Virus record (IMG/VR): IMGVR_UViG_3300046616_000314
Coordinates: 474,616-538,615 of that record
DNA length: 64,000 nt
Strand: one strand, 5' to 3'
Source of the DNA: a virus
The translations under genes and the position numbers were made by a program. The first letter of the stretch is position 1; each line of letters opens with the position of its first letter. Below the pieces are notes generated by a model. It ran no database searches. It was not told the DNA's origin and was given only the letters and a program-made list of their open reading frames with translations. This document shows positions 3,422-42,599 of the stretch, piece by piece.

Positions 3422-5323
3422 ATGCCATCAGTTGATAATAGTCGTATCAGTACACCTACGGGTGAAATCGATTACGCAGAAGATGACGCAACCGCAAATG
3501 CGTCTACCACGTCCTCTTCTTCGCTAAATTCCTCTTCCACAACAAATCCTGATCAAACTATTTCTGGTTTGAACATCGGTGGTGGCTACGGTGTGTTCGC
3601 CGGAACCAACGGTCAATATGATGTTGTCATGGAATTCAAAACGCTGATTCCTGGCGTTGGTATTGAATTGATCCAAGATGCTTCAACCATCACTATCAAA
3701 AATGTTGGTCAAAGCTCGGGTAACGGCACGATCATCGGTGACGGTTTTGACATCGATCTAGGTGATTCGAACACGGTCGTTTGGTCCGGTGGCGCCTTGC
3801 CATTTACAAATACGACGGTTGTTTCTGAAGCCATTGACGATCTCAATAAGCTTCTTGCCCTTCTGGTCCCTTCTGCCCCGCCTGCATTCCCTAACGCAAA
3901 TGCGCTGGTCATCACCAACACAACGGGTTCGACTCCGTACCTGTGTTCGGGTGTAACAAACAACTCGGGCACAACCGCTCCCACCGCTGGTACCGCGATC
4001 AACCGCATTACTACAACGGGCGCAACTTCCAACGTTTTCAATGACATGGGTCCTGGCAATTCGGGAACCATTCAATTGCGTGTCAATGGCGCGGTCGCCA
4101 ACTCGCATGTCATGACTGGTACAGGCGACAATGGCAACTACGGCGGTCTGTTGATTGCTGACCAAAAAGATTTCCCGGTTGCGACCCCTGGTTTCTATAA
4201 ATCAGTTGATGTCTCGGCTCTGCTGGCTGCTGCACCATTCGGTCTGAATCGTATTAGCTTAAACCATACTGGTGCTGGTGCAACTGCGGACGTGTTCTTT
4301 GTCCGCGATGCAATGACTAGCATGGCTTCGCTGAATTCTTCTACAGTTACCGAAGCTGCACTTGGTACTGTTGCGTACTCTTCAAGTGTTCCGCACTACA
4401 ATACCGGTGCATCATTGACTGTTGGTACAACCGCTACGAACATTTCGGGCGATACATACTACGGTGGCACTGATCCTCTGGTTATTTCTTCTCCGGTTAT
4501 CGCTTCTCAATCGTTTGCTTATGGGACATTGGGTATCACGACACCGATTACTAAAGATTTGACTACTGCGACTATCAGCCCCGTAACTGTCAACATCGAC
4601 GGCACTGGTCACACTTCGGGTGTGATCCAGGGTTCGTTCAAGAACGTCAACGGCGCAAGCACACTGACGACACTATCACCGACCACTGTCTTGATTAAGC
4701 GTGGCTCTGCTGGTTCGCGCATTGACGAAATGAGCGTCCCCGTTTCGGGTCTGGGTTCATCTCCGAACACCAACAACGCACTTCGCGTGGGTCAAGCCGC
4801 TGGTGACACACCGGCTGGCTCTCCTGCGGCTTGGGTTTCGTCAGCTTCGATTGCTACGCATGAAGCCGCCGTGGTCGCTGGTATTCTGAAGCATGACCAA
4901 ACAAATTATAGTGTAAATTATTTGCCAGTTGGACCGGACCTGTCTTCAGGTCGTTCCGGTGCTCAATATGTCACGTTCTCGTTCAATCGTGCAACCGTGT
5001 CTACCTTCAAGATCGCCATCACTGGAAATTATGCTGGCTGCTGGATCAAGCTTCCGGGTGTTTCGGATAACAACTCTATTTCACCGAATGCCGCGAACGG
5101 CTGGTGGAATATGTCTCAATCGTACATCGGCGCGGGCGTCCCCGGCGGTCCTGGCGACACAAACGCGGGTTGCGCGGTTGGTTCGGTCATGACCGGTTCG
5201 ACGGGAACATATACCGTCACATTCGGTACACAAACTTCAACAAATGCAACGGGTAATCAGATTTTGGTTCGTATTCGCTTGAATGCTGGACAAACAATTT
5301 CGGCACTCGCGTTCACGAACTAA
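3422..5323 (+). CDS. Tail fibre protein A (paralogue of the minus-strand fibre at 20398)
   Basis: 633 residues, Ser/Thr/Gly/Asn-rich, beta-structured, typical of trimeric fibres. The N-terminal ~100 residues are low complexity (Ser/Thr runs). From about residue 135 onward it aligns end to end with the minus-strand protein 20398-22224: shared landmarks include SAPPAFPN/PAAPPAFPN, DMGPGNSGT, YYGGTDPLVIS, LSSGR-GAQYVTFSFNR, YAGCWI-LPGVSDN, SPNAANGWWN and the identical C-terminal block NATGNQILVRIRLNAGQ. Only the N-terminal module differs, so the shared part is probably the distal receptor-binding region and the N-terminus decides where the fibre attaches. Late promoter and hairpin-controlled ribosome-binding site lie upstream. 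Confidence 0.85.
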   Translation: MPSVDNSRISTPTGEIDYAEDDATANASTTSSSSLNSSSTTNPDQTISGLNIGGGYGVFAGTNGQYDVVMEFKTLIPGVGIELIQDASTITIKNVGQSSGNGTIIGDGFDIDLGDSNTVVWSGGALPFTNTTVVSEAIDDLNKLLALLVPSAPPAFPNANALVITNTTGSTPYLCSGVTNNSGTTAPTAGTAINRITTTGATSNVFNDMGPGNSGTIQLRVNGAVANSHVMTGTGDNGNYGGLLIADQKDFPVATPGFYKSVDVSALLAAAPFGLNRISLNHTGAGATADVFFVRDAMTSMASLNSSTVTEAALGTVAYSSSVPHYNTGASLTVGTTATNISGDTYYGGTDPLVISSPVIASQSFAYGTLGITTPITKDLTTATISPVTVNIDGTGHTSGVIQGSFKNVNGASTLTTLSPTTVLIKRGSAGSRIDEMSVPVSGLGSSPNTNNALRVGQAAGDTPAGSPAAWVSSASIATHEAAVVAGILKHDQTNYSVNYLPVGPDLSSGRSGAQYVTFSFNRATVSTFKIAITGNYAGCWIKLPGVSDNNSISPNAANGWWNMSQSYIGAGVPGGPGDTNAGCAVGSVMTGSTGTYTVTFGTQTSTNATGNQILVRIRLNAGQTISALAFTN

Positions 5324-34296: not shown

Positions 34297-34881
34297 ATGG
34301 CTACGGTTTCCAATTTCGGAATTCCTAATGGCGGTGGCGGTGGTCGTGGCGGCTTCATCCATCCCAAGACAAAGCAGAAGTTCCGCGTCCGCGTGTTCAA
34401 TTTTGGACCGGTAGCCGGTGGTTTGGAACTGACGCAACAAGTTGAGACGGTTGATCGTCCCGGCGTTACTTTCGATTCGAACGAAGTTCACTCGTACAAC
34501 TCACTGGCGTACTACGCTGGTAAGGCGAAGTGGGATTCGATCAACCTTGTTATCCGTGATGATATTTCTAACTCGGTAAACAAGTTGGTCGGACACCAGT
34601 TGCAGAAGCAAATGAATTTCTTCCAACAAACGTCGGCTGCTGCGGGTTCGAACTATAAGTTCCAAACCTTCATCGAAACCCTCGACGGTGGTAATGACAC
34701 TGTGTACGAGCAATGGACTCTTGAAGGCTGCTTCCTAGAATCCGCTAAGTACGATCAGTTTGACTACAAGTCGAGCGATCACATGACCATCCAACTGAGC
34801 ATTCGTTACGATAACGCAACCCAATCTGACGGCTTGATGGACCTGAATCCTCAACTGGGCGTCGGACCTATGCAAATGTAA
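34297..34881 (+). CDS. 19: Tail tube protein (T4 gp19-like)
   Basis: 194 residues (T4 gp19 has 163). Forms the inner tube of the contractile tail. Characteristic segments are FRVRVFNFGP, the loop VETVDRPGVTFDSNEVHSYNS, KWDSINLVIRDD and the C-terminal LEGCFLESAKYDQFDYKSSDHMTIQLSIRYDNA. The Gly-rich N-terminus is short. ATG follows GGAGA directly and is covered by a hairpin in read-through RNA. A second, longer tube-like gene follows 15 nt downstream. Confidence 0.92.
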   Translation: MATVSNFGIPNGGGGGRGGFIHPKTKQKFRVRVFNFGPVAGGLELTQQVETVDRPGVTFDSNEVHSYNSLAYYAGKAKWDSINLVIRDDISNSVNKLVGHQLQKQMNFFQQTSAAAGSNYKFQTFIETLDGGNDTVYEQWTLEGCFLESAKYDQFDYKSSDHMTIQLSIRYDNATQSDGLMDLNPQLGVGPMQM

Positions 34882-37940: not shown

Positions 37941-38720
37941 ATGTCTATTAAGAAGTATCTCGCCGAGGGCGAAAAGCACTACCAATATCGTTTGAAGACG
38001 GTTATGAAGTTGGACGACGACGCAATGGATCGCGTCGAACGTGTTCTGTTGAAGCACCTTCCGGTGGACATTAGCCGTCCTAAGAAGATGATGTTCCAAG
38101 CCCGTCCTCTAGATTTCACCAACGTCGAAAACGCTGAAATTTATTTCGTGGATTTCACCCTAGAGCTTCCCGCTTCTCCTAACGTTTTGGAGAGCGAAAT
38201 TCGTATCGCTCTGAAAGCACCGGCTCCCTATGTCATCGTTCGTGGTTTCAATGACCCGACCGCTCTTGAGCAAAACTTGCTGGACGCAGAAGGCGCCATG
38301 GCAATCGCTGCTGCAAAAGAAGGTATGACCCCTGGCGCCCTGATGGACGAAGGTAATTACGCTGATGGTGATGAACCGGAAACTCCGTTGTACGGCGATG
38401 CATACAACGCAAAACTAAAAGACTATCTGCGTACGATCCAAAAAGATGATCCGACCAACAAGAAGATCGATGCTCCGAATGCTCTCTTCAAGTGGATGGA
38501 TATGCCCAAGGATGGTGCCGATGACAACATGGCGTTCAACAACGGCATCAAAGACGCCCCTGGTCTCGGTAAGGCTGGCACAAAAGAAAAGCCGGTTGAA
38601 ACTTCGCCGGAAGGAAATCTTGACGATACACAGAAGCGTTACAAGCGTCTCTACGGTAAGGATGGTACTCGCGTAGCATTGACCCGTACTAGTGATGAAG
38701 TTCGCAAGGGTGGCAACTAA
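37941..38720 (+). CDS. Virion-associated protein candidate
   Basis: 259 residues. The first ~100 residues (YQYRLKTVMKLDDDAMDRVERVLLKHLPVDISRP, YFVDFTLELPASPNVLESEIRIALKAP) form an alpha/beta domain. The rest is charged and probably extended (DEPETPLYGDAYNAKLKDY, TSPEGNLDDTQKRYKRLYG). Proteins of this pattern are found in structural clusters of T4-like phages. Late promoter upstream; overlaps the next start by one base (TAATG). Confidence 0.75.
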   Translation: MSIKKYLAEGEKHYQYRLKTVMKLDDDAMDRVERVLLKHLPVDISRPKKMMFQARPLDFTNVENAEIYFVDFTLELPASPNVLESEIRIALKAPAPYVIVRGFNDPTALEQNLLDAEGAMAIAAAKEGMTPGALMDEGNYADGDEPETPLYGDAYNAKLKDYLRTIQKDDPTNKKIDAPNALFKWMDMPKDGADDNMAFNNGIKDAPGLGKAGTKEKPVETSPEGNLDDTQKRYKRLYGKDGTRVALTRTSDEVRKGGN

Positions 38721-39547
38721 TGGCTGATATGCGCTCTCTTCTGCGGATTGTCGAAGGTTGGGAAAAAACCAAGACGAATATGCCGCAACGAATGACATCG
38801 GGACGGTATTCGGACAACCCGATGAAGGATGCTGCTGGTCAGGAATTCCGTAACACGTCACCGCGTTATGCAGATAACCCATTGAAAGAAGACAACGAAT
38901 TTCCTCAATACCCCCAAGAAACATTGGACACGCTTCGTGGTCTATTGAATTCCATTGGTGTTGAAGATGATCGTATTGCCCGTGGTGTTGAATTGCAGCC
39001 TTCGGGTTATGCGAAGATCGCGGGAACCATGGGTATTCATCAAAAAGATGTCGTTCGTATGATCGCATTCTTGCGTACCGATCTCCAAGACGATGAAGAA
39101 CAATTGGACGAATCCGAAGACCCGCGTTTTACCTATGAAAAAGACATCATCGGAAACGTAACGGTTCGTGACACCATCACCGGTAAAGAAGAATATATCC
39201 AAGGCGAGCCCGCTTCACAGTTGCTCAATCGTTTGAAGTCAGGTACAGATGAGCAACAATTGCTTAGCTTGTATTTCAAGGATGAGCCTCACGAACTGCA
39301 TGAGGATGACAATTTGTTTAGCCCGTCTGATGACAATTTTGAAGACGAAATCAACAGCAAAAGCGGTTCATACAATTTCCCCTGGAACATTGGTGACGAA
39401 CATGGCACGGCTACGGCGACCTATACCGATGATGGAAAGATCAAGGTAGTCAGCCTACGTGACGAAGAGGGTCATGAGCTTCAGATGGACCCGGCTATCA
39501 AAGACCAAATTCTTCAACAAGCTATTTCGTTTATTTCAGAGGTATAA
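38720..39547 (+). CDS. Virion-associated protein candidate, acidic
   Basis: 275 residues, highly acidic, co-translated with the previous gene. The N-terminus holds two similar segments (GRYSDNPMKD and PRYADNPLKED), a possible short repeat. The middle has a helical module (SGYAKIAGTMGIHQKDVVRMIAFL). The C-terminus (TATATYTDDGKIKVVSLRDEEGHEL) is a small beta domain. Likely a late structural or assembly protein, by position. No close family recognised. Confidence 0.75.
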   Translation: MADMRSLLRIVEGWEKTKTNMPQRMTSGRYSDNPMKDAAGQEFRNTSPRYADNPLKEDNEFPQYPQETLDTLRGLLNSIGVEDDRIARGVELQPSGYAKIAGTMGIHQKDVVRMIAFLRTDLQDDEEQLDESEDPRFTYEKDIIGNVTVRDTITGKEEYIQGEPASQLLNRLKSGTDEQQLLSLYFKDEPHELHEDDNLFSPSDDNFEDEINSKSGSYNFPWNIGDEHGTATATYTDDGKIKVVSLRDEEGHELQMDPAIKDQILQQAISFISEV

Positions 39548-39548
39548 T

Positions 39549-40532
39549 ATGTATATCAAGGAATTGTTTGAAGACGTTACGCCTTCTGATAACGAATCAA
39601 TTCTTTATCACGGCATGAGCTTTACTCGTGCAGTCGGTGCGATGATGGACAATTCCATTCATGGTCCTTCTGGTGGAGTGACTATGTTTACGGATATGTC
39701 GGCTGCTAAAAAGCAAGCTCGCGAATCGGTAAAAGACCCCAAAAATCTGTATGGTGCGATTGGTGCCATTTCAGCCAAGGTCGAAAACGAACTTCCTCCG
39801 GTTGGTGTTGTTTTCGAATTGAATGGCTATCGTTTGACCAAGGGATATCATATCCAACCGTTGAACGTCGGTTTCTCGGGCACATACCGGGTCGATGGTG
39901 AGATTCACGAACTGCGTCAATTCATTGAACACTTGGAATATCCCAAGACTGTTGCTCGTGCCTATATCGAACGTCTGGTGCAAGCCGCTGCTGAATTGGG
40001 TGATGATTACGTTGCTCAACGTTTTGTTGCGACCGCAAAAGATTTCATCGGCTCGATCAGCGAAGCATACGATCCCGAAAAAGAAAAAGTTCATTTCGAC
40101 GCCTTGGATCGTACTGGTTTCTATGGTGCGCAAGGTGCAGGCTGCATTATCCTAGCAAAAGACACTGGTCGTTTGCTGTTTAATCACCGAAGCAATATGG
40201 TTGAACAACCGGGCACTTGGGGTAACTGGGGTGGAGCAATTGATCCTAATGAAGACCCCGCCGTTGCAGCGCGCCGCGAAGTTCAAGAAGAAGCTGAATA
40301 CCACGGTCCTCTAGAACTATTCCCGTTGTTGGTGTTTACAAAGGGTACGTTCCGCTATTCGAATTTCCTCGCTGTCGTAGCTTCAGAATTTGAACCGCAA
40401 TTGGATTGGGAAAGCCAAGGATATCGTTGGTGTGACTTCGGTGATTTCCCTGAACCGCTGCACTTCGGCATGGTTTCATTGTTCAACGACCCGGCGAGCG
40501 TCGCAACGATCAAATCGCACCTGAAAAAATAG
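39549..40532 (+). CDS. ART-like domain fused to a Nudix hydrolase
   Basis: 327 residues from ATG 39549 (two nt after the previous stop). Residues ~17-125 look like an ADP-ribosyltransferase-type fold seen in phage proteins: ILYHGMSF (His21), GGVTMFTD (~42-49), PVGVVFELNGYRLTKGYHIQPLN, and RVDGEIHELRQFI (Glu118/121), i.e. the order H…S/T-Y…E. Residues ~195-327 are a Nudix hydrolase with an intact box, G229-x5-E235-x7-REVQEE (243-248). Nudix enzymes hydrolyse nucleoside diphosphates linked to other groups, including ADP-ribose and NAD-capped RNA. The combination in one chain is unusual. Catalysis of the first domain is inferred from pattern only. Confidence 0.75.
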   Translation: MYIKELFEDVTPSDNESILYHGMSFTRAVGAMMDNSIHGPSGGVTMFTDMSAAKKQARESVKDPKNLYGAIGAISAKVENELPPVGVVFELNGYRLTKGYHIQPLNVGFSGTYRVDGEIHELRQFIEHLEYPKTVARAYIERLVQAAAELGDDYVAQRFVATAKDFIGSISEAYDPEKEKVHFDALDRTGFYGAQGAGCIILAKDTGRLLFNHRSNMVEQPGTWGNWGGAIDPNEDPAVAARREVQEEAEYHGPLELFPLLVFTKGTFRYSNFLAVVASEFEPQLDWESQGYRWCDFGDFPEPLHFGMVSLFNDPASVATIKSHLKK

Positions 40533-40556: not shown

Positions 40557-40593
40557 ATAGGGCGCCCCTGAGTAATTTCTTGAGGCGCCCTAT
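40557..40593 (+). promoter_or_regulatory. Hairpin covering the start codon of the zinc-finger gene
   Basis: atagggcgcc (40557-40566) is perfectly complementary to ggcgccctat (40584-40593), whose last two bases are the A and T of ATG 40592. The TGAGG ribosome-binding site is in the loop/stem junction. No T-run follows, so it looks like a translational hairpin more than a terminator. Confidence 0.55.
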
Positions 40594-40897
40594 GACTGTT
40601 ACCCTGGCTCAAAGCGAATTGGCAAAGACCGTGCCTTGCGGGCATTGTGAAGCTAAGGCAGGGCATTCATGTGTTGATTGGCGAAAGAAGCCGATCCGTT
40701 ACTCGCATTCGTCGCGCGTTCTCCAAGCACAAAAGCAAGACGTATCCAAAGATGAATGGACGCCTCAACCTACTCTAAATAATTTTGCTGGCGATATTGA
40801 TACGCTGGTATCTCGTCTGATGGAATTGAAGGCGAAGGGCTTTCAAAACGTTGCCGTTCAAGGCGGTTATTACACCGCTCTGGTTTCCGCAAACTGA
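40592..40897 (+). CDS. Small protein with phage-type zinc-binding motif
   Basis: 101 residues. VPCGHCEAKAGHSCVDWRKKPIRYSHSSRV (about residues 15-45, C-x2-C…C…H) matches the CP-x-C-x-A-x-x-G-x-x-C…H-x-x-R zinc finger found in small phage DNA-binding proteins. The C-terminal helix (DIDTLVSRLMELKAKGFQNVAVQGGYYTALV) is separate. ATG 40592 is preceded by TGAGG; an in-frame TTG twelve nt upstream would overlap that site. The start codon lies in a strong hairpin. Confidence 0.75.
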   Translation: MTVTLAQSELAKTVPCGHCEAKAGHSCVDWRKKPIRYSHSSRVLQAQKQDVSKDEWTPQPTLNNFAGDIDTLVSRLMELKAKGFQNVAVQGGYYTALVSAN

Positions 40898-40962: not shown

Positions 40963-41343
40963 ATGTCTGATATTGAAAACGCTCGCGGTACAACTTTCCT
41001 TAATGAAATGGGTGACATCGAAATCACCTGGGAACCCGCGCAAGATGCAGCCATGCGCGAGATCATCGAAAAGAAAATGAGCGAAGGTGTTCGCTTTATG
41101 ATTCTTGCCCCGATTTTGGGTACGTTCCTGAAAGCCAAGCGTCGCATCAAATCGGTTGACGAACTTCAGACGCTAAGCATCCGTGTCAAGGACCCGGATA
41201 TTGAAGCCCTGTTCAAGGCTGGCAAGGTGTCTCTTGAACGCGCTGAAAACACCGGGACGATCAACCCGGTTGGCTACGCGAAGACTGCGGATGATGCCGT
41301 TAAAAACCGCACTGTGGCTGTCAAAGCCTATCAAGGTGGCTGA
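40963..41343 (+). CDS. Hypothetical protein
   Basis: 126 residues, alpha/beta, with MREIIEKKMSEGVRFMILAPILGTFLKAKRRIKSVDELQ in the middle. No recognised motif. The stop overlaps the next ATG (TGATG), so it is coupled to the 418-residue protein that follows. Only a weak ribosome-binding site is visible. Confidence 0.75.
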   Translation: MSDIENARGTTFLNEMGDIEITWEPAQDAAMREIIEKKMSEGVRFMILAPILGTFLKAKRRIKSVDELQTLSIRVKDPDIEALFKAGKVSLERAENTGTINPVGYAKTADDAVKNRTVAVKAYQGG

Positions 41344-42599
41344 TGCCCGCTCCTGATGTTGCTTATTTTCTAGATTGTTCGGTGCAATGCGGACATATGG
41401 GTGGTGATACCTATCACTACTTTATGAACGTGTGTCCTGACACCAACGAGATTCTAGACAATTACGACAAACTGGAACGCCCGCCGGGCGAACGCCATAT
41501 GCATACCCTATTGGATATGGGTCTCTATCATGAAGACCTGTATCTGAATTGGCGGCATCACAACCGCCAAGACTCTGTAATCGCATCCTTCAATGGAATG
41601 CGCCCCGTTTCCTATACCATTAAGGAACTGGGTTTGACTGCGGTCAACGAACTATACTCGCTAGGTAAAGAGAACCTAGATCGCCCCGGTATGGAACACT
41701 TGCAAGCCAAATACAAATTTGAAACTTGTATTGCTTTGCAGCGTCGATCCATTGCACGCTCGCACGCGGATATGTCGCAACTTTCTACGACAGAAATTCG
41801 GGCGATCCGATTGGATTCCGATGCCCGTGAACGTCAGCAAATGATCGCTGCGCAAGAAGCGCGCAATCAGTATATCAATCCCAATGCACTTCCTGCCCTT
41901 CCCGATGAGGAATGGAATGACGGGCGATGGACACCCACGCCGAAACTAACCGGACCTGAACTGGTTCGTGCTCAACGTTTGCTCCAAGATAAAAACCGGC
42001 GCGTTGTCAAACGAAGCATTAAATTTTTTGAAAAGCTGGTTGGTTCAACGACTGCCCGATTGCTGATTTCTGGCGACAGAATTCGTATTGAGGGTAAGCA
42101 TGGCGTTTATGAAATCAAGAAATCTGGCACGCTGACTGCCGCCCACGGTGCAGCGCGATTGTCTGTGTTCACAAAGAAAAATGATCTGCATCTTTGTGAC
42201 GTGTGCATTTACACACCTAATGTTCCGATGCTTGATCACGTCGCCGCGATGATTATGGATATACAGTGCGGCAACGAAGAACAAATTCTATCAATCGGCA
42301 ATCCTTACAACGTGTCGGTACATGCGCGCGAACAGGATTGGCTCGTTCCATTTTTGCCAAAACAAACCCTTGGTGTGAACGGAATTATTTTTGCGGACCA
42401 TATTACCGCTGGAATGATAACCGGAAATCAAATGCTTGCGTATGGTCCTCGTGAGCTTGAAGACCCGAAAGCCATCGCAGAGCGGGTCCGTATCCAAACA
42501 CTTCTCCGAAAGAGTGTTAGTAAATATTTGTACAACGAACTGATTGATGATTTCGCCGATAGTTATCGCAAAGTCATGGCGTACGCCGAACCATATTAG
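41343..42599 (+). CDS. Hypothetical protein, 418 residues
   Basis: Soluble, alpha/beta, with several Cys/His clusters (DCSVQCGHMGGDTYHYFMNVC; LHLCDVCIYTPNVPMLDHV) that could bind metal. The region ~245-310 (GDRIRIEGKHGVYEIKKSGTL…HGAARLSVFTKKNDLHLCDVC) reads like a small beta domain. The first ~120 residues contain GERHMHTLLDMGLYHEDLYLNWRHHNRQ. I do not recognise the family. It is translationally coupled to the preceding gene and ends before an early promoter. Confidence 0.75.
   Translation: MPAPDVAYFLDCSVQCGHMGGDTYHYFMNVCPDTNEILDNYDKLERPPGERHMHTLLDMGLYHEDLYLNWRHHNRQDSVIASFNGMRPVSYTIKELGLTAVNELYSLGKENLDRPGMEHLQAKYKFETCIALQRRSIARSHADMSQLSTTEIRAIRLDSDARERQQMIAAQEARNQYINPNALPALPDEEWNDGRWTPTPKLTGPELVRAQRLLQDKNRRVVKRSIKFFEKLVGSTTARLLISGDRIRIEGKHGVYEIKKSGTLTAAHGAARLSVFTKKNDLHLCDVCIYTPNVPMLDHVAAMIMDIQCGNEEQILSIGNPYNVSVHAREQDWLVPFLPKQTLGVNGIIFADHITAGMITGNQMLAYGPRELEDPKAIAERVRIQTLLRKSVSKYLYNELIDDFADSYRKVMAYAEPY

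What the first reader, a model, noticed from the sequence alone, without database searches (positions are those of the whole stretch)
39549..40532. ADP-ribosyltransferase-like domain fused to a Nudix hydrolase
The N-terminal half has the order YHG…TMFTD…VVFEL…GEIHELRQF expected for an ART-type fold, and the C-terminal half has an intact Nudix box. T4 uses separate ART enzymes (Alt, ModA, ModB), one of which attaches NAD-capped RNA to proteins, and Nudix enzymes can remove ADP-ribose or NAD caps. A single protein containing a possible writer or reader and an eraser of ADP-ribose/NAD linkages would be a new arrangement. It lies in a late virion cluster, so it might be packaged and injected.
Basis: inference. 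Interest (0 to 1): 0.72.

Follow-up and report, generated by a model that had tools for sequence, protein, structure and literature searches.

The report
Capsid-targeted degenerate ART fused to Nudix
A giant T4-like phage carries a protein, probably packed into the virus head and injected, in which a decayed-looking ADP-ribosyltransferase domain sits between a head-targeting leader and a nucleotide-cleaving Nudix domain, and related giant phages have joined the same kind of Nudix enzyme to other ADP-ribosyltransferases more than once.

Summary
The ORF is real (327 aa). The C-terminal Nudix domain is certain (Pfam 4e-13) with all catalytic residues; the box deviates from consensus only at Gly (E250). 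The N-terminal half has no Pfam, PHROG or NCBIfam match and no relative detectable by tblastn. Profile-profile comparison, shuffles and two paralogs elsewhere in this 561-kb genome make it a divergent member of a large, unannotated phage family (LYHxT...FLSTTR...FVLDG...ExED). That family's AlphaFold model matches DarT, the DNA ADP-ribosyltransferase, and nothing else in the PDB. So 'ART-like' is supported. However, the best alignments put Arg where the second Glu of ExE should be, and the conserved Arg is missing too; the model of this particular domain is poor. It may be a pseudo-ART.

In about ten distinct relatives with the same gene order (13 contigs) the Nudix gene has the same short leader and no ART domain, so the ART was inserted between leader and Nudix. 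The leader resembles the T4 capsid-targeting sequence (MKTYQEFIAE), and the genome has T4-type portal and prohead protease. The 'new arrangement' claim is only partly right: in this Nudix family 10 of 56 clusters are fused to an ART. A new variant of the known theme of head-packaged NAD/ADP-ribose effectors.

The parts
39549..40532 (+). whole gene: leader + DarT-like ART-fold domain + helical linker + Nudix hydrolase, 327 aa
   Evidence: Shine-Dalgarno-like AGAGG upstream
39549..39572 (+). N-terminal leader MYIKELFE|D, T4 capsid-targeting-sequence-like (cleavage expected after E8)
   Evidence: matches the leaders of syntenic Nudix genes (MFIRELFE, MRIHDLFE, MEISELFE) and resembles T4 IPII/IPIII MKTYQEFIAE; enrichment test
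39597..39998 (+). DarT-like ART-fold domain, about residues 17-150 (H21 kept; ExE region reads E121-L-R123); absent from syntenic relatives
   Evidence: hhalign; family fold; own model low confidence
39999..40106 (+). predicted helical linker (about residues 151-186) between ART-like and Nudix domains
   Evidence: predicts helix at the end of the folded segment (low confidence); Nudix homology begins at about residue 187
40107..40514 (+). Nudix hydrolase domain (residues 187-322)
40233..40301 (+). Nudix box G-x5-E-x7-REVQEE-A-E-Y (catalytic residues intact, consensus Gly replaced by E250)
   Evidence: sequence
37941..38720 (+). upstream virion gene with CTS-like leader MSIKKYLAE|G; PHROG head-and-packaging virion protein
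   Evidence: phrog_14802, 1e-10; synteny
38720..39547 (+). upstream virion-cluster gene, conserved neighbour of the Nudix gene; its homologue is split around the Nudix domain in a 608-kb phage (L040)
36197..36670 (+). T4 gp4-like head-closure protein (TnsA-like fold), conserved context
34297..34881 (+). tail tube protein, conserved context
   Evidence: phrog_4542, 2.6e-57
41343..42599 (+). downstream conserved neighbour of unknown function

Best explanation
It is a head-packaged, injected protein of a T4-like huge phage. A short capsid-targeting leader (MYIKELFE|D) would bring it into the prohead core and be cut off by the T4-type prohead protease. The Nudix domain is the working enzyme: delivered with the DNA, it hydrolyses an NDP-X compound early in infection, most plausibly an ADP-ribose- or NAD-related molecule. 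The N-terminal domain is a DarT-like ADP-ribosyltransferase fold inserted between leader and Nudix. It has lost at least one catalytic residue and most likely serves to bind a nucleic acid or nucleotide ligand, or the Nudix substrate, rather than to transfer ADP-ribose. Shown: the ORF, the Nudix domain, the synteny, the absence of the ART domain in relatives, and the leader similarity. Supported but not proven: DarT-like membership. Inferred: packaging, injection, loss of transferase activity, substrate.
For: Nudix. ART-fold membership: hhalign of the N-terminal domain against the phage LYHxT/FELDG family gives score 37.5 (prob 84%), 33.2 (68%) with P0001-selected members removed, and 41.3 (89%) when two paralogs from the same genome are added; best shuffles reach about 20 and the best of the other background ORFs 26. 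A pattern taken from its FEL[DN]G..L...Y.I.P strand hits only two places in IMG/VR, both in LYH...[ST]xTR proteins; four hits in genome contigs lack these motifs. The family's AlphaFold model (pLDDT 86, pTM 0.83) matches four Thermus DarT structures with probability 1.00; the next hit has 0.08. Insertion: about ten distinct syntenic relatives (13 contigs) lack it. Packaging: leader enrichment, 19/28 and 30/45 against shuffle means of 0.7 and 0.8; T4 portal and Peptidase_S77 prohead protease in the genome. Functional link: ART fused or within 4 kb in 18/56 Nudix clusters against 3/40 random stretches, p = 0.003.
Against: No HMM library recognises the N-terminal domain and no contig encodes a tblastn relative, so it rests on one sequence. 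Its AlphaFold model is poor (pLDDT 51); its PDB hits are all KptA/DarT at the top but with probability below 0.2, and its alignment rows were DarT-like family members, so that is not independent. With a larger, narrower family profile the hhalign score falls to 25.9, barely above the best shuffle (23.2). Local alignment to the nearer paralog is beaten by 12 of 3000 shuffles, and to the other by 51. Where strand 2 lies (TMFTD or AISAK) is uncertain, so residue-level statements about the pocket are soft. No virion proteomics.
Confidence: 0.5

Rival explanations
1. Active writer plus eraser: the N-terminal domain still transfers ADP-ribose (to DNA, RNA or protein), and the Nudix domain trims the adduct or removes free ADP-ribose, making a self-limiting switch.
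For: H21 and E121 are present; another register would supply a single Glu as in PARP-type ARTs; independent ART-Nudix fusions in related phages argue for a shared pathway; the genome also carries better-conserved DarT-like and polyvalent-type ARTs, so this chemistry is used by the phage.
Against: The natural alignment puts R123 where the second Glu of ExE is and no Arg at the SxTR position. Nudix enzymes cut the pyrophosphate and so leave phosphoribosyl on the target rather than erase it (established chemistry).
Confidence: 0.17
2. The N-terminal domain is not an ART at all: a lineage-specific insert of unknown fold whose YHG and FEL motifs match by chance.
For: Singleton; no library match; poor model; weakened score with a larger profile.
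Against: Scores above all shuffles in every broad DarT-like-family profile test and is not matched by the Alt-like or polyvalent ART profiles; order and spacing of LYHG, VVFEL.G..L...Y.I.P and E..xF[IV] follow the two paralogs found independently in the same genome.
Confidence: 0.17
3. The Nudix gene is an ordinary virion component or nucleotide-pool sanitiser of T4-like huge phages; the extra N-terminal domain is a passenger without functional coupling.
For: The Nudix gene is conserved in this virion cluster without any ART domain; its nearest solved relatives are RenU, DIPP1, MutT and ApnA hydrolases rather than ADP-ribose pyrophosphatases; the Nudix is also fused to ParB, GNAT, nucleotidyltransferase and HAD-like domains.
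Against: ARTs of several kinds recur as partners or neighbours above the background rate.
Confidence: 0.16

Closest known systems
DarT (DNA ADP-ribosyltransferase of DarT-DarG; PDB 7omv-7omy)
   Same: Predicted fold of the phage family to which the N-terminal domain belongs; first-strand His, an Arg in the second motif and a Glu near the end of the domain are conserved in that family
   Different: No detectable sequence similarity by HMMER; the window protein lacks the Arg and the second Glu of ExE; DarT is a bacterial antiphage toxin, this family is phage-borne with capsid-targeting-like leaders; no DarG-like partner was looked for or seen
T4 Alt (head-packaged, injected ADP-ribosyltransferase) and T4 internal proteins IPII/IPIII
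   Same: Short N-terminal leader of the CTS type, T4-type prohead protease in the genome, proposed packaging and injection
   Different: The ART domain here is not of the Alt/VIP2 R-S-E type (hhalign to the Alt-like set no better than shuffles); Alt has no Nudix domain. Alt-like ART fused to the same Nudix family does occur in related contigs such as L028 and L030-L035
Phage head-packaged Nudix domains (fused to MuF, portal or protease) and polyvalent proteins (PMC9503650, PMC5512222)
   Same: Nudix in the late/virion cluster, fused to other injected-type domains
   Different: The fusion partner here is a DarT-like, apparently degenerate ART domain inserted between leader and Nudix; this combination was not found in the passages of those papers that I read
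KptA-Nudix fusion of Bodo saltans virus (PMC9503650)
   Same: ART-superfamily domain and Nudix in one viral polypeptide
   Different: Giant eukaryotic virus, RNA-repair-type KptA ART, no capsid-targeting leader described

Membership tests
Nudix hydrolase superfamily | Nudix box GX5EX7REUXEEXGU on a Nudix fold | tested here: met
   PF00293 E=4.2e-13, 49.9 bits against a cut-off of 21.1; catalytic G, E, REUxEE all present; only the late Gly is replaced by E250
Nudix ADP-ribose/NAD-specific subfamilies (NudE, NudF, NudC type) | specific subfamily match | tested here: not met
   NCBIfam equivalogs far below cut-off; nearest solved structures RenU, DIPP1, MutT. Substrate therefore open
DarT-like phage ART family (LYHxT/FLSTTR/FVLDG/ExED) | sequence-profile relationship | tested here: met
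   hhalign 84-89% probability with the broad family profiles, above all shuffles; only 19% with a larger, narrower profile. Moderate evidence
DarT-like phage ART family (LYHxT/FLSTTR/FVLDG/ExED) | catalytic set His, Arg (SxTR), Glu (ExE) | tested here: not met
   His21 kept; Arg replaced in both possible registers; second Glu of ExE aligns with R123
ART fold | three-dimensional ART fold of this very domain | tested here: inconclusive
   own model pLDDT 51, hits KptA/DarT with probability below 0.2; the family model is a clear DarT match
T4-type capsid-targeted internal protein | N-terminal leader ending in [LIV]xE recognised by the prohead protease | tested here: met
   MYIKELFE|D; leader enrichment in the two families; T4 CTS read from the T4 record; Peptidase_S77 in the genome. 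Similarity only
T4-type capsid-targeted internal protein | presence in virions, cleavage and injection | not testable with these tools
   needs virion mass spectrometry
T4 Alt / VIP2 (R-S-E) ARTs | profile match to Alt-like/PF03496 | tested here: not met
   no PF03496 match in P0001 or anywhere in the genome; hhalign to the Alt-like set below shuffles
Polyvalent proteins | multidomain effector protein (2 to 15 domains, usually large) with separately recognised enzymatic domains | tested here: inconclusive
   two domains in 327 aa, only one of them recognised by a curated family model; larger polyvalent-like Nudix fusions exist in L018, L053, L057, L080, L087 and Tunturi_5

The most novel reading that the evidence does not exclude
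Huge phages inject a DarT-fold ADP-ribosyltransferase covalently coupled to a Nudix hydrolase that act on the same ADP-ribose adduct or metabolite, a built-in writer/trimmer switch. More broadly, T4-like huge phages carry a large capsid-targeted family of DarT-type enzymes, i.e. the virus side of a chemistry known as bacterial antiphage defence.
Probability: 0.2. Interest if true: 0.8.

Novelty: new variant of a known kind. Interest (0 to 1): 0.52.

Why it matters
Head-packaged ARTs and Nudix enzymes are predicted to be a first strike of phages on host NAD/ADP-ribose signalling, but which ones act on the same molecule is unknown. Recurrent fusions of one Nudix family with several ART types, often next to virion genes and behind T4-like targeting leaders, single out a testable enzyme pair. 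The leader also offers a simple way to predict which proteins of huge phages are packaged and injected. A large unannotated DarT-fold family in phages would be a phage counterpart of a known antiphage toxin.

Tried and rejected
1) tblastn alignments of residues 58-190 to Asteriusvirus-type jumbo phages: these run through a stop and across the tail-sheath-stabiliser gene and vanish when the N-terminal half is searched alone; rejected. 2) Pfam, PHROGs, NCBIfam for the N-terminal half at E up to 10: nothing meaningful. 3) Close relatives in IMG/VR, phages, plasmids, 40 related records: none. 4) Full-length combined alignment for folding: MAFFT misaligned the two domains, so the N-terminal domain was folded alone; the model was poor. 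5) Alt-like and polyvalent-ART profiles against the N-terminal domain: no better than shuffles. 6) First, narrow LYHxT profile against the domain with hmmsearch: no better than shuffles; only the broader family gave signal. 7) A loose leader pattern (any [LIVFM]xE in 14 residues) was dropped because background genes of the same loci match it 32% of the time.

Full report
OBSERVATION. The frame 39549-40532 (+) is open for 327 codons, begins at an ATG preceded by AGAGG, and the reverse strand is broken. The Nudix domain is certain: PF00293 4.2e-13 at residues 196-306, phrog_1198 3.5e-19. The box is GAIDPNEDPAVAARREVQEEAEY; all metal and catalytic positions are present, the consensus Gly is E250. 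The first half matches nothing meaningful in Pfam, PHROGs or NCBIfam at E up to 10 and has no tblastn relative in phages, plasmids or IMG/VR. Apparent hits of residues 58-190 in Asteriusvirus-type phages are artefacts that cross a stop codon and a neighbouring gene.

CONTEXT. The window lies in a 561,116-bp virus record with T4-type portal (PF07230, 323 bits) and T4-type prohead protease (PF03420, 92.8 bits). The gene sits in a virion cluster: tail tube, a second tube-like protein, gp4-like head closure, PHROG virion protein, g38720, then this gene.

DOMAIN INSERTION. A Nudix-based scan of IMG/VR gave 80 loci, and a scan with the virion gene 37941-38720 gave 11. In 13 contigs (about ten distinct phages; three pairs are near-identical) this virion cluster is kept, and in 12 of them the Nudix gene consists of a short leader followed directly by the Nudix domain, for example MFIRELFEGEHD-, MRIHDLFEASADAEH-, MEISELFESDEEH-; in the thirteenth (L040) the Nudix domain lies inside the homologue of g38720. 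None has the ART-like domain. In the window the leader is MYIKELFED and about 165 residues intervene before the Nudix domain. The ART-like domain is therefore most simply a lineage-specific insertion. GC and third-position GC of the two halves are alike, so it is not an obviously recent import.

WHAT THE INSERT IS. ORFs next to these Nudix genes, and whole arrays in named jumbo phages (Lu11, Dickeya JA33, Alishewanella Slickus01, Salicola SCTP-2, Vibrio K566), belong to an unannotated family with LYHxT, FLSTTR, FVLDG..L and ExED motifs. At least 150 stretches in IMG/VR encode it. Its AlphaFold model is confident (pLDDT 86, pTM 0.83). Its only meaningful PDB matches are four Thermus DarT structures (probability 1.00, E about 1e-3, TM about 0.5; next hit probability 0.08). 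So the family is a DarT-like ART fold by structure comparison, although HMMER sees no link. Fold, not activity, is what this shows.

The window domain scores 37.5 (84%) against this family with hhalign; 33.2 (68%) when the two members found with its own pattern are left out; and 41.3 (89%) when two paralogs from its own genome, found independently with the family profile (sequences), are added. Shuffled versions reach 20, the reversed sequence 9.9, and the best of the other background ORFs 26.2. A pattern from its strand, FEL[DN]G..L...Y.I.P, has only two hits in IMG/VR, both in proteins with LYH and [ST]xTR upstream; four hits in genome contigs lack them. Against this: a larger, narrower profile drops the score to 25.9, close to the best shuffle of 23.2; the domain's own model is poor (pLDDT 51); its PDB hits, all KptA or DarT in the first 13 ranks, have probability below 0.2 and are not independent of the alignment rows. 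I put the probability of an ART-fold relationship at about 0.8.

ACTIVE SITE. In the family His, Arg (SxTR) and ExE are invariant or nearly so. In the window protein His21 is kept, the Arg is missing in either possible register (TMFTD or AISAK), and E121-L-R123-Q-F-I aligns with E-x-E-E-F-V, placing Arg at the second Glu of ExE. A single-Glu register cannot be excluded. The simplest reading is a degenerate ART domain.

PACKAGING. T4 IPII and IPIII begin MKTYQEFIAE|A (read from the T4 record); the first ten residues suffice for capsid targeting (PMC9026906). Leaders of the two families are of this type (MRAIEFITE|A, MKAAEFITE|S, MFIRELFE|G). A core pattern matches 19 of 28 Nudix and 30 of 45 DarT-like leaders, against shuffle means of 0.7 and 0.8 and maxima of 5 and 6 (the Nudix set there was picked by eye for short leaders, which inflates its fraction). 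This control tests letter order only; background genes of the same loci also often carry a looser version, as expected if they too are virion proteins. The genome's other ARTs start MFIHEILCE|G, MRDLMNIVE|G, MRYRDLLKE|S and MRQWINIVE|H.

ART-NUDIX LINK. Of 56 Nudix clusters (85% identity), 10 are fused to an HMM-detectable ART: Alt-like (PF03496 9.3e-12 in L028; also phrog_802 Alt-like 4.8e-5), polyvalent-type (L068-L071, L080), DarT-like (L018). More are visible by eye (L048, L053, L057, L089, Tunturi_5). Fused or within 4 kb: 18 of 56 against 3 of 40 random 8-kb stretches from the same contigs, Fisher p = 0.003. The Nudix is also fused to ParB-, nucleotidyltransferase-, GNAT- and HAD-like domains, so the link is an enrichment, not exclusive.

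COMPARISON WITH THE LITERATURE. Head-packaged phage ARTs and Nudix domains fused to MuF, portal or protease are described (PMC9503650, PMC5512222, PMC7824862), as is a KptA-Nudix fusion in Bodo saltans virus. In the passages read I found neither a DarT-like capsid-targeted family nor recurrent ART-Nudix fusion in huge phages; I did not read these papers in full, and most subscription literature is not searchable here.

VERDICT. A real gene and a real two-domain arrangement. The writer half is probably a degenerate DarT-like ART fold, the Nudix half is probably active, and packaging is likely. New variant of a known kind; interest moderate, raised by the recurrent ART-Nudix pattern and the DarT-like family.

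Noticed in passing
L118-L197 and loci L014, L022, L028, L036, L042, L103, L107-L117: Large unannotated phage family (LYHxT...FLSTTR...FVLDG...ExED) with predicted DarT fold and T4-CTS-like leaders, often in tandem arrays (Lu11, JA33, Slickus01, Salmonella phage Sen-NF); all 'hypothetical protein' where annotated.
   Followed up: partly
L028, L030-L035, L038 (ORF around 3965-5250): Same Nudix family followed by an Alt-like ART (PF03496, phrog_802) in one about 420-aa protein with a leader of the MRVLDLFE type.
   Followed up: partly
L040:3437-4717: In a 608-kb phage the Nudix domain lies inside the homologue of the window's upstream gene (38720-39547): N-terminal part, Nudix, then the C-terminal YNFPW part.
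   Followed up: no
L018/L020:3188-7969: 1593-aa protein with ParB-like, Nudix, DarT-like ART and GH19-like segments in one chain.
   Followed up: no
G000:C1:308434-308733 (-), L247:11-2442: A second Nudix protein of this phage has an N-terminal nucleotidyltransferase-like part (NadM-like) and lies next to a nicotinamide phosphoribosyltransferase-like gene (both identified by eye), suggesting an NAD salvage pair.
   Followed up: no
G000:C1:106731-107357 (+) and 294160-294729 (+); L245, L246: Two ART-PolyVal proteins (69 and 63 bits) elsewhere in the genome with leaders MRYRDLLKE|S and MRQWINIVE|H.
   Followed up: partly
L003:5788-10257 (Tunturiibacter phage Tunturi_5 ORF273): 1489-aa protein with a HAD-like N-terminus, the Nudix domain and at least three YHG(T/S) ART-like segments; annotated only as MutT/NUDIX hydrolase.
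   Followed up: no
window 40580-40897: Small protein with a phage zinc-finger match (PF24623, 1.1e-6) directly downstream of the ART-Nudix gene.
   Followed up: no
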